From: Candidatus Abyssobacteria bacterium SURF_5
GTDB lineage: Bacteria > Abyssobacteria > SURF-5
Direction: 5' to 3'
DNA: 58,344 nucleotides
Assembly (NCBI GenBank): GCA_003598085.1
Contig: QZKU01000139.1
Coordinates: forward strand, 1 to 58,344
Shown: positions 54,287 through 58,272 of the stretch, in pieces
Layout of the letters: each line of letters starts with the position of its first letter
How positions within the stretch are numbered: position 1 is the stretch's first letter
Translations under genes and position numbers: made by a program
The notes under the pieces: generated by a model
Databases searched by the model: none
Told to the model about the DNA's origin: nothing
Seen by the model: only the letters and a program-made list of their open reading frames with translations

Positions 54287-56266
54287 ATGCATCTTACTAA
54301 GGGAGTTCTTTATTTCATTACCTGTCTTATTGCTACAGTGCCGCTTCTGCTTTTTTCTGCTTCTGCATCGGAGGCGGCTGTGTACCTTAACCAGCCGCTG
54401 GTCAATTTATCCTGGAGTTCCTCCGGGGCACCCGACACGAAGGGGTATGAGGTCCATCGATCCACGACCTATAACGGCGTGTTCACAAAAATCTCCGCCA
54501 CTCTCATTGAGGCCTCAACCTGGACTGATTCGAATGTTGCCGATGGCAGCACGTACTACTACAAGCTGACGGCCATTGACACGTGTGGCAATGTGAGCGG
54601 GTTATCTATTGCTTCCGATGCAGCTGTTATAGATCTCTCAGCCCCCTCGGTCTCGGCCAACCCTCCCGGCGGAACCTACCGCCAGTCTGTTTCTGTGATG
54701 CTTGAGGCAAATGAGCCGTCCACGATCTACTATACGACCGATGGAAGCGTTCCCACGACCTCCTCTGCGGTTTTCTCGGCTCCCATAATTTTGGCGAAAA
54801 GCACCGTTCTGAAATATATCGCGGTCGACCGCGCATCAAATAAAAGCCAAACGATGACAAGCACCTATACGCTCGATGTCGGCTCGATAGATGCAGACGA
54901 TGATGGATATGATTCGGACATTGATTGCGACGATACTGATCCCTTGATCAATCCGGGCGCAAGCGAGGCCTGCGGCGATTTTGTCGACAATGATTGCGAT
55001 GCCCTGGTTGACGAAGGATGCGATGATTTAATAGCGCCTGCGTACATCGATAACTCGCTTTTCCCATTCCCGGGAAATGGAATCGATGATGACGTGATCA
55101 TACCTCCCGATACCACTATTCGCCTTCGATTAGTTGACGGAGCAGGACTCGATATTTGTGAAGAGATCTACCGAACTTCAATCACTGCATCGGCTGTCTA
55201 TATTGCAGGCGGGGAGGAATTCTTCGAGCCCCTGATCGGGGAAACCAAATTCAAGGTAATCGACGAGGGGGACTGCACTGACGCGTGGATTGTTTTCGTT
55301 CCCGATTTTGAAAATGCGTATGGTGATGGGCTTCCTGTCGGCGGGATCATTGAGGTTGTTGTCGAAGCTTCGGATGTTTTTGGCAATTACACCGTTTTCT
55401 TCGAAGGCGGCTCGTACCGGTTCAGGGTAAGCGAGAATGATCCTCTGCCGTCTCAGTCTTTTGAGGATCCCAATCCGTCAGCGGATGGCAATCTCGTGAC
55501 GGTAACGCTTCTTGAAGGGCCCAATTCGGGTGTGTTCATGCAGTATCCGGATTCCATTATGCCTGCGCCATATTTCGGGCCGCCGGCTGATATTCCCGGG
55601 CTGCCTGGCAGCGTCACCCCCGTCTTGCCGGAGCCTGTTAATCTGCAACCTCCCTGTGTGTTCTTCAATGATGAATTCAGCCTGTTCATTCCGCTTCCTG
55701 ATGGCGCTGAACCGGCCTCTTTCGAGGTTTGGCGCTTCGATGCGGTAACGGGCTGGGAGGCAGCCGACAGCGGCGACGATTGGCTCGTCAACAGGATCAA
55801 TCATGCGTCATATCCGGCTCCCAATGGTCCGCCGACGGTGGAATTGATTGTCAGCCACTTCACCGGCGCTCAGCTTGCTACGGCCTCCGTCATATATGGC
55901 GGCGGCGGCGGTGGTAGCGCCAGTTGCTTTATTGCCACGGCCGCGTACGGCTCTGCCCTCGAAAAGGACGTGATGATCTTGAGGCAATTCAGAGATACCT
56001 ATCTTTTGCCGAACGTGCTGGGAAAAGAGCTGGTTGAAATTTACTACAGAACCAGCCCGGGAATTGCACAAGTGATTGCCCGGCATGAAATGTTGCGAGC
56101 GGTAACCAGAACGATACTGATGCCCATTGTCTGGGTGTGTAAACTCTCACTTGAAACTCCCGCTCGCGCCATATGGCTCCTCATGACGATGTTAATGGGA
56201 GTTATATGCGCCGGCCTTCTCACTTTCAGAATCCGGAAAAAGAGATTCTCCAAGCAGGCCTGTTGA
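54287..56266 (+). CDS. surface protein with FN3, MopE-like motif and CFI-box C-terminus
   Basis: A 659-residue secreted protein. A signal peptide (1-31) is followed by a fibronectin-III-like domain (about 35-118), a chitobiase-C-terminal-like domain (about 120-195; [21 protein letters not shown]) and an Asp/Cys-rich MopE-type motif (about 203-246; [20 protein letters not shown] and [17 protein letters not shown]), which probably binds metal. A long beta-rich part comes next. A glycine linker leads to [10 protein letters not shown] (Cys547), [10 protein letters not shown], a C-terminal membrane helix (about 629-647) and a basic tail. That end matches CFI-box-CTERM proteins. Cell-surface location is expected; function unknown. 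AACTTGGGAG-type ribosome-binding site precedes the ATG. Confidence 0.85.
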
Positions 56267-56927: not shown

Positions 56928-57300
56928 GGCGCACCGGCTAGATTAAACTTGCGAACATGACTGTGGGAACAGCTGCGTGCATTCTCGCGCTGTCGGCGCA
57001 ATAAGCATTCCGCACGTCGCCGCAACTGCCGCGCTACCTCCTTCTTTATCTTAGGCTCTTCCTGTTTTATCGGCATAACGGCCTCCCAAGAAATCACCGA
57101 TAGCAAACCTTAATTCTCCATCACTATCGATCCAGTCCTTTAAACCGCTATATGGAAGTTCAATCTCATCGATAAAAAATAAAATAATAAGGAAGTATAC
57201 AAAAGGGCAATATTGACATGAGATAATAAACGTGATAAGTAATTATCTGAAATTGAGCTTATTACGTACCGTGCACAGAGAAGAAACAAGGAGGGCAGCC
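56928..57300. other. intergenic region, becoming AT-rich
   Basis: 373 bases between the lipoprotein gene and the unrecognised gene. The right part (about 57140-57240) is clearly AT-rich compared with its surroundings. It holds TTGACA at 57213-57218 without a good -10 site at the right distance. On the minus strand a start-less, protein-like frame runs through 57051-57242. Confidence 0.5.
57051..57242 (-). pseudogene. possible gene remnant (start-less minus-strand frame)
   Basis: An open frame of 63 codons between stops, with no ATG, GTG or well-placed TTG. The translation has protein-like character in its second half (IDEIELPYSGLKDWIDS, then DGELRFAIGDFLGGRYADK). It ends with TAA at 57053-57051. 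It may be the 3' end of a lost gene, or chance. I do not recognise a family. Confidence 0.2.
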
Positions 57301-58272
57301 ATGGAGGCAATGATAGGGGCGGGCAAGCTTCTGATTCGTGCCGACGATCTGAGGGCGATTCGCAAAGATACCGTCAGGAAATTTTCCGCAGATATGACAG
57401 CAGGCAACGAAGCAAAATTGGATTTTAGAAGCGGGACTTTGGCCTCGGCTGATATTCCGCGGGGGAGAGGGGAAGAGGTTGGGATTGGGAAGCCTCTCTG
57501 CATCCAAATAGAACGCATTTATGTAGGCAATTTACCGAAAAGATTTCCGCCAGGAACTGATGTCTTGGTGACTTCCGGTGTTAAAGCCGCTCATACCTAT
57601 GAGGCGGTTGCGAGAGCCATCAATTTGCTGAAAAAAGATGTCAGTCGATTCACGGAGATTCAATTCAGTGCTGTGGAGCCTGGCACAAAGGTGGTTTTCT
57701 ATACTCCGGCTGCAACGGATTTTGAGACTTGGGTGACAATCGAGATTATCGACGATTCCTTTCCGAAAGAAGTCTTTGAGGAGGCTTCGCAACTATTGTC
57801 CCAGGCGGGGGCGCTTCCTCTGTTCGCTGCCACAAGTGCGTACTTTTTAGCCGGATCATTGATCTTCAAGATGATCGGAGGGATCGGTGAGAGGTTGTTT
57901 GACGGCAAGCCTCATATGTCGTGCAGTAACGAAATCAGCTTTCTTGCTTCAAGAGGCGCGGAAATAGGCGCCCATGCACTTCTTTTTGCAAATCCTCGCG
58001 ATTTGAAGGAACTGGAGAACAAATATTACATAAAGAAAGTCGGTCGCAAATACGACCTGATATCAAAGGACGACGACAACTCTTCGTACGATGGGGAGGT
58101 TCCGTATGTGATTGCAGGTCTGAGCGGAATGAAGCGAGATGATTTGGCTTCTTTCACGCCTCAAGTCGCTTCGGCAGCCGTTCTTAGTCGCTTCCTTTCC
58201 ATGGGTGAAGGCGAGGGCAAGCTAGCGGGCGCTGTGTTGGAAGGACTAACCCATCTTCCGCAGTTTGACTGA
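57301..58272 (+). CDS. unknown 323-residue protein, possible beta-sandwich (C2-like) domains
   Basis: I do not recognise this protein. After a lead of about 55 residues comes a beta-rich domain (about 69-165; IQIERIYVGNLPKRFPPG, DVLVTSGVKAAHTYEAVARAI, GTKVVFYTPA). A helical pair with a hydrophobic stretch (about 175-205, LFAATSAYFLAGSLIFKMIGGI) and a second beta-rich domain (about 210-310; GAHALLFANPRDLKELE, EVPYVIAGLSGMKRDDLASFTP) follow. The two beta domains joined by a helix pair recall C2-like architectures; that is a weak, by-eye idea. No signal peptide. ATG 57301 has AAGGAGGG at ideal spacing; GTG 57232 would add 23 residues of poor quality. Confidence 0.7.
   Translation: MEAMIGAGKLLIRADDLRAIRKDTVRKFSADMTAGNEAKLDFRSGTLASADIPRGRGEEVGIGKPLCIQIERIYVGNLPKRFPPGTDVLVTSGVKAAHTYEAVARAINLLKKDVSRFTEIQFSAVEPGTKVVFYTPAATDFETWVTIEIIDDSFPKEVFEEASQLLSQAGALPLFAATSAYFLAGSLIFKMIGGIGERLFDGKPHMSCSNEISFLASRGAEIGAHALLFANPRDLKELENKYYIKKVGRKYDLISKDDDNSSYDGEVPYVIAGLSGMKRDDLASFTPQVASAAVLSRFLSMGEGEGKLAGAVLEGLTHLPQFD

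What the first reader, a model, noticed from the sequence alone, without database searches (positions are those of the whole stretch)
57301..58272. Unrecognised 323-residue protein with two beta domains and a helical hinge
I cannot place this protein. Its sequence is well formed, it has an ideal ribosome-binding site, and its upstream DNA is unusually AT-rich. Two beta-rich blocks around an amphipathic or membrane-active helix pair suggest C2-like modules, a layout that can be found in membrane-acting effectors. It is the best candidate in the window for an undescribed protein family.
Basis: inference. Interest (0 to 1): 0.55.

Follow-up and report, generated by a model that had tools for sequence, protein, structure and literature searches.

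The report
Rare protein linked to lysis genes
The gene is real and belongs to a small, undescribed bacterial protein family whose Caulobacter relatives sit beside probable cell-wall-cutting enzymes and protease-based self-destruct systems, which makes the family a testable candidate for a missing part of bacterial self-lysis, though its own job is not shown.

Summary
The ORF is a genuine gene: good Shine-Dalgarno, in-frame codon signal, very AT-rich upstream DNA, and eight homologues. It matches no Pfam, NCBIfam, PADLOC, PHROG or PDB entry, and both AlphaFold models were useless (pLDDT 33.7 and 29.0). The "C2-like, membrane-active" reading is therefore untested by fold, and hydropathy argues against a conserved transmembrane segment.

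The family is rare and scattered: the window genome, two genomes of one other small phylum, a Pseudarthrobacter plasmid, and 5 of 390 Caulobacteraceae genomes. In all five Caulobacteraceae loci (three lineages) the gene is directly beside a probable peptidoglycan hydrolase without a signal peptide: a firm NlpC/P60 match in one lineage, indirect evidence in two. Four of these loci contain trypsin-like peptidases and STAND ATPases; the fifth has a weak caspase-like neighbour. In C. vibrioides the pair abuts lypABC, the published CARD-NLR-like operon whose lytic effectors are unknown; all six published catalytic residues match.

Best guess: a cytosolic partner of a cell-wall-lysis effector (0.35). 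Against it: the window gene's downstream neighbour is lost at the contig end, the other-phylum copies lack such neighbours, and the published Tn-seq text names only lypABC.

The parts
57301..58272 (+). CDS of the family member, 323 aa, ATG start; last complete gene of the contig, which ends 72 bases later
   Evidence: homologues
57288..57294 (+). Shine-Dalgarno AAGGAGG, 6-nt spacing to the ATG
   Evidence: sequence
57151..57250 (.). AT-rich upstream stretch, 26% GC
   Evidence: 5 of 11,649 overlapping 100-base windows as low or lower
57487..57756 (+). Residues 63-152: first beta-rich block, with the family signature around VVxYxP (residues 131-136)
   Evidence: alignment; propensity only
57763..57903 (+). 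Residues 155-201: helical, moderately hydrophobic stretch; not a conserved transmembrane segment
57913..58128 (+). Residues 205-276: second beta-rich block, with invariant Pro-Tyr at 268-269
58132..58200 (+). Residues 278-300: helical stretch before the C-terminus; the eight relatives continue further as a tail that this copy lacks
   Evidence: alignment, propensity

Best explanation
The protein is a member of a rare, undescribed family that appears to have moved between phyla. The family most likely works in the cytosol as an accessory partner (escort, activator or membrane-access factor) of a peptidoglycan hydrolase that has no signal peptide of its own. The pair would be a cell-lysis module held in check until a protease-centred conflict system (NucA-trypsin or LypABC/CARD-NLR type in Caulobacteraceae) triggers it. 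Shown: the family, its distribution, its adjacency to hydrolase-like genes in five Caulobacteraceae loci, and the identity of the C. vibrioides operon with lypABC. Inferred: that adjacency means partnership, the direction of the pathway, and that the window copy does the same, since its downstream neighbour is beyond the contig end.
For: Family: tblastn 30% identity, E 3e-24 to a C. rhizosphaerae plasmid; profile hits E 2.6e-16 and 2.8e-14; 5 of 390 Caulobacteraceae genomes. Neighbour hydrolases, 5 of 5 Caulobacteraceae loci, three lineages. (i) G1000: the next gene overlaps by 11 nt and is NLPC_P60 (E 1.4e-15) plus DUF1353 (E 4.2e-19), followed by trypsin-EAD1. (ii) G1080: the next gene, 39 nt on, is a 561-aa protein whose plasmid homologues are annotated SH3-domain, DUF2272 and S8 peptidase. 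(iii) C. rhizosphaerae, C. vibrioides and G1206: a divergent gene whose C-terminal part resembles proteins annotated 'peptidoglycan-binding' or 'D-Ala-D-Ala carboxypeptidase family metallohydrolase', and one NucA-type fusion. None of these three enzyme types has an N-terminal hydrophobic signal-like stretch at its likely start (C. vibrioides start re-read). In C. vibrioides the locus is lypABC: LypA S262, LypB K230 and D335, LypC S296, H471 and N505 all match.
Against: The C. vibrioides- and G1080-type hydrolases have no Pfam, NCBIfam or significant PDB match (the C. rhizosphaerae homologue stands for the first type). Adjacency inside an 8-gene island has a chance of about 0.25 per lineage, about 0.016 for three, so the specific link is modest. 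G180 and G386 copies lie beside SPFH/NfeD genes, not hydrolases. Azospirillum has the G1080-type hydrolase with no family member annotated beside it and no family match on its plasmid. G000 has no EAD1 and no C. rhizosphaerae-type hydrolase match (one search had no positive control). The LypABC paper reports 41 enriched genes and an unknown effector and names only lypABC at this locus in the text read. Its ghost cells keep their shape, which does not suggest strong wall digestion.
Confidence: 0.35

Rival explanations
1. It is itself the membrane-acting effector: the central hydrophobic helices insert after proteolytic activation, as bacterial gasdermins do, and the hydrolase next door finishes lysis.
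For: Encoded with trypsin-like or weakly caspase-like (E 0.11) peptidases in Caulobacteraceae; the relatives carry a C-terminal tail rich in charge that proteases could remove; LypABC-dependent lysis collapses the inner membrane. The central stretch has mean hydropathy 0.63 in this copy.
Against: No conserved transmembrane-grade segment: maximum hydropathy 1.05-1.43 in eight relatives, 1.66 here. No PADLOC match, no PDB match by profile. No usable fold.
Confidence: 0.2
2. It is an inhibitor or immunity-type protein that keeps the cytosolic cell-wall hydrolase silent until proteolysis removes it.
For: Two-gene cassettes with different hydrolases in G1080 and G1000, the family gene first and coupled to the enzyme gene.
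Against: One conserved family would have to inhibit unrelated enzymes (no blastp match between the three enzyme types at E below 0.1). Copies without an enzyme neighbour exist in G180 and G386.
Confidence: 0.12
3. It has nothing to do with lysis: a stand-alone cytosolic protein (sensor, metabolic or mobile-element cargo) that was picked up beside defence genes in Caulobacteraceae.
For: Stand-alone in G180 and G386 beside SPFH/NfeD; no EAD1 in G000, G180, G386 or G580; lower GC3 than its window neighbours fits a transferred gene.
Against: Direct adjacency to hydrolase-like genes in three separate Caulobacteraceae lineages and a convergent LGFP/YkuD-like wall protein in Pseudarthrobacter.
Confidence: 0.33

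Closest known systems
LypABC, CARD-NLR-like lysis system of Caulobacter crescentus (PMC13236601: abstract, sections 7, 8, 9, 10, 13 and passages read)
   Same: In C. vibrioides DSM 9893 and in G1206 the family gene, a hydrolase-like gene and DUF1353 lie directly upstream of lypABC; the six catalytic residues named in the paper match in DSM 9893.
   Different: The family protein is not LypA, B or C and has none of their domains. The paper reports no role for the flanking genes in the text read. The window genome is not known to hold lypABC.
NucA-trypsin conflict system, 'System 3' of Kaur et al. 2020 (PMC7159879: section 32 and passages read)
   Same: Trypsin_2, Endonuclease_NS, EAD1 and STAND proteins surround the family gene in Caulobacteraceae; the paper mentions lysozyme- and papain-like peptidoglycan domains in these systems.
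   Different: The family itself is not mentioned in the passages read; supplementary files could not be opened.
Bacterial gasdermins (passages in PMC13236601; otherwise recalled)
   Same: Neighbour of trypsin-like and STAND proteins in CARD-NLR loci.
   Different: No PADLOC, Pfam or PDB profile match.
Phage holin-endolysin cassettes (recalled)
   Same: A conserved small partner next to exchangeable cytosolic wall enzymes without signal peptides.
   Different: No holin-like transmembrane helices in the family; no phage match in 50,697 records.

Membership tests
C2 domain | C2 profile match | tested here: not met
   No C2 family among Pfam matches for any of 8 members at E up to 0.5 or for the window protein up to E 5
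C2 domain | Eight-stranded C2 sandwich fold | tested here: inconclusive
   Both AlphaFold models below pLDDT 34; no fold search was run on them
Bacterial gasdermin | Match to gasdermin models or structures | tested here: not met
   PADLOC none (for the window protein, for two relatives), PDB profile none; that these libraries hold gasdermins is recalled
Bacterial gasdermin | Adjacent protease | tested here: inconclusive
   Trypsin_2 genes within the locus in Caulobacteraceae; unknown in the window genome, which was not searched for Trypsin_2
Bacterial gasdermin | Pore formation in membranes | not testable with these tools
   needs biochemistry
NucA-trypsin system (System 3) component | Trypsin-like peptidase and NucA-type endonuclease in the same locus | tested here: inconclusive
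   Both in C. vibrioides and, by blastp to LypC, in G1206; trypsin without a NucA match among the proteins scanned in C. rhizosphaerae and G1000; window side unseen beyond 58344
NucA-trypsin system (System 3) component | EAD1 in the genome (subset of systems) | tested here: not met
   No EAD1 in G000; 1 of 8 genomes or records searched has it, the C. rhizosphaerae plasmid
Holin | Transmembrane helices | tested here: not met
   Maximum KD19 1.05-1.66 over nine members
The new family | Core from GKPL-type motif through VVxYxP to PY near the second beta block | tested here: met
   Invariant P65, L66, G76, Y134, P136, D152, P268, Y269, F298 in 8 of 8 aligned members

The most novel reading that the evidence does not exclude
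The family protein and the hydrolase next to it are the missing lytic effector module of LypABC and related bacterial CARD-NLR systems: on activation, the LypA/LypC proteases release the pair, the family protein gives a cytosolic wall enzyme access to the periplasm, and the cell lyses. The window copy would be the same kind of lysis partner in a little-known phylum.
Probability: 0.17. Interest if true: 0.85.

Novelty: new variant of a known kind. Interest (0 to 1): 0.48.

Why it matters
The authors of the LypABC work state that the downstream lytic effectors are unknown. The family gene and an exchangeable wall-enzyme gene lie directly upstream of lypABC in two genomes and recur as a pair in further Caulobacteraceae lineages, mostly beside other proteases. 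If the pair is the effector, a bacterial inflammasome-like system gains its executioner; if not, two simple deletions in a harmless laboratory bacterium settle it. The family has no entry in the libraries searched.

Tried and rejected
Single-sequence and two-sequence AlphaFold2: mean pLDDT 33.7 and 29.0, not used. No fold search was run on such models. PDB by profile: nothing significant. Viral and phage origin: nothing in viral contigs or phages. C2 and UFM1-ligase readings dropped: weak or no match. Internal duplication: not found. Next contig of the window: the right end was compared with 144 of 144 other contig starts and 16 contig ends, no overlap found; 128 other contig ends were not read. 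EAD1 and the C. rhizosphaerae-type hydrolase in G000: no match (one search carried no positive control). The tree does not resolve the window copy: no starred set of up to half of the rows holds it, and Pchl is a long branch. Papers: nothing for the C. rhizosphaerae protein accession or for CCNA_00585/00586.

Full report
What is there. The window is one whole contig (G000:C139) of a 5.1-Mb, 145-contig assembly. The ORF at 57301-58272 encodes 323 residues and is the last complete gene; 72 bases remain after it. The start has AAGGAGG six bases upstream. Coding signal, length against shuffles and homology all say gene; its GC3 (0.517) is below that of seven other window genes (0.571-0.669), and the 100 bases at 57151-57250 are 26% GC, matched or undercut by 5 of 11,649 overlapping windows. 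The last two points fit, but do not prove, a transferred gene.

No known family. Pfam gives only a sub-threshold hit (E 0.068), NCBIfam and PADLOC nothing, PHROGs nothing for this protein, and PDB nothing significant with the sequence or with profiles of five, six and eight members. Scanning eight members against Pfam gave one weak hit each for five different families and none shared.

Relatives. tblastn on plasmids found C. rhizosphaerae (30%, E 3e-24) and Pseudarthrobacter chlorophenolicus pACHL01 (24%, E 1e-4), 2 of 72,556 records. Profile searches found 2 of 386 genomes (own and G180), 2 of 4 in the small class of G180, 1 of 383 relatives of G029 (G180 again), 1 of 385 of the class of C. 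vibrioides (itself) and 5 of 390 Caulobacteraceae. The two other genomes held of the window's phylum lack it (1 of 3 positive), and a single-sequence search found it in 1 of 60 relatives, the window genome itself. The second genome-contig scan, with a two-member partial alignment, added C. vibrioides DSM 9893; the first, with the window protein alone, found nothing. Phages and viral contigs gave none. The family is thus rare and patchy, which suggests transfer. Pairwise identities to the window copy run from 20 to 32%. Nine residues are invariant in eight aligned members; the window copy ends before the C-terminal tail that the other eight have.

Anatomy. Hydropathy does not support a conserved membrane helix, and the two beta blocks show no detectable similarity to each other.

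Neighbours. C. rhizosphaerae: Trypsin_2, EAD1 and nSTAND1 proteins and a divergent 451-aa gene. C. vibrioides and G1206: the same divergent gene, DUF1353, then a trypsin/ATPase, a STAND ATPase and a trypsin-Endonuclease_NS protein. G1080: a 561-aa gene 39 bases downstream, and, divergent from the pair, a hydrolase, a weak caspase-like hit (E 0.11) and a pYEATS protein. G1000: an NlpC/P60-DUF1353 gene overlapping by 11 bases, then trypsin-EAD1 and a weak nSTAND1 hit. Pseudarthrobacter: a convergent LGFP-repeat protein with weak YkuD similarity, which has a signal-like N-terminus. G180 and G386: SPFH, and in G180 NfeD, convergent, no hydrolase seen. The NlpC/P60 assignment is firm. The other two wall enzymes rest on homologues annotated as peptidoglycan-binding, D-Ala-D-Ala carboxypeptidase family, SH3-domain, DUF2272, NucA or S8 proteins and on motif resemblance that I recall; neither has a Pfam, NCBIfam or significant PDB match.

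These loci match the NucA-trypsin 'System 3' of Kaur et al. (PMC7159879, section 32 read), which the authors say is mostly alphaproteobacterial and can carry lysozyme- and papain-like peptidoglycan domains. The C. vibrioides operon is also lypABC of Banks et al. (PMC13236601; abstract, sections 7, 8, 9, 10 and 13 and passages read). With LypA starting at residue 5 and LypC at residue 34 of the ORFs, S262, K230, D335, S296, H471 and N505 all fall in place, and the operon is 6,868 bases against the 6.9 kb reported. The annotation paper PMC3951458 (passages read) gives NA1000 coordinates for CCNA_00581, 00582 and 00584 that agree within a few bases with lypA, DUF1353 and a gene antisense to the hydrolase ORF; so CCNA_00583 is probably the hydrolase and the family gene probably follows near 613324. 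That last step is inference.

How it may work. A constant cytosolic protein beside three unrelated wall enzymes, none with a signal peptide, in loci with proteases (a weak one in G1080), suggests a lysis module needing a partner for access, activation or restraint. I put 0.35 on an accessory partner, 0.2 on a direct membrane effector, 0.12 on an inhibitor and 0.33 on no link to lysis. Random adjacency inside an eight-gene island would be about 0.25 per lineage and 0.016 for three lineages, so the link is modest evidence, and three lineages is a small number.

Against. The Tn-seq screen reported 41 enriched genes and the text names only lypABC at this locus, while the effector is called unknown; if neighbours had been enriched it would probably have been said. 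[quoted passage not shown] Ghost cells keep their shape. Complete lypABC was detected in only four Caulobacter species that also have GTAs, and three of these are not among the named relatives found here. The G1080-type hydrolase occurs in Azospirillum without an annotated family neighbour. For the window copy itself, neither protease nor hydrolase is seen, EAD1 is absent from the assembly and the next contig was not found.

Verdict. The value lies in the relatives' gene neighbourhood, which turns an orphan into a testable candidate for a lysis partner.

Noticed in passing
L010:6508-8810 and L020:7473-9775: DUF1353 and a hydrolase-like gene lie directly upstream of lypABC in two Caulobacter genomes; by published coordinates these are probably CCNA_00582 and CCNA_00583 of NA1000.
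   Followed up: partly
L022:10406-11425: NlpC/P60 domain fused to DUF1353, directly after the family gene; DUF1353 and NlpC/P60 also match phage tail families in PHROGs.
   Followed up: partly
L003:7060-9144: LGFP-repeat protein with weak YkuD similarity, convergent with the Pseudarthrobacter family gene on pACHL01.
   Followed up: no
L021:14305-18603: Hydrolase, weakly caspase-like and pYEATS genes divergent from the family gene in G1080: perhaps another protease-centred conflict locus.
   Followed up: no
L185:2790-5543: Sinorhizobium meliloti plasmid protein annotated DNA/RNA non-specific endonuclease that also carries the C-terminal domain of the Caulobacter hydrolase-like protein.
   Followed up: no
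G000 contig starts (L024-L163): 94 of 140 contig starts share a 21-mer in their first 120 bases with another start, and the window's left end shares about 90 bases with the start of C27: repeat-driven assembly breaks.
   Followed up: partly
window 54287-56266: Secreted-looking protein with chitobiase C-terminal, Fn3-associated and MopE metal-binding matches and a C-terminal [10 protein letters not shown] motif (recalled as a sorting-type tail, not tested).
   Followed up: no
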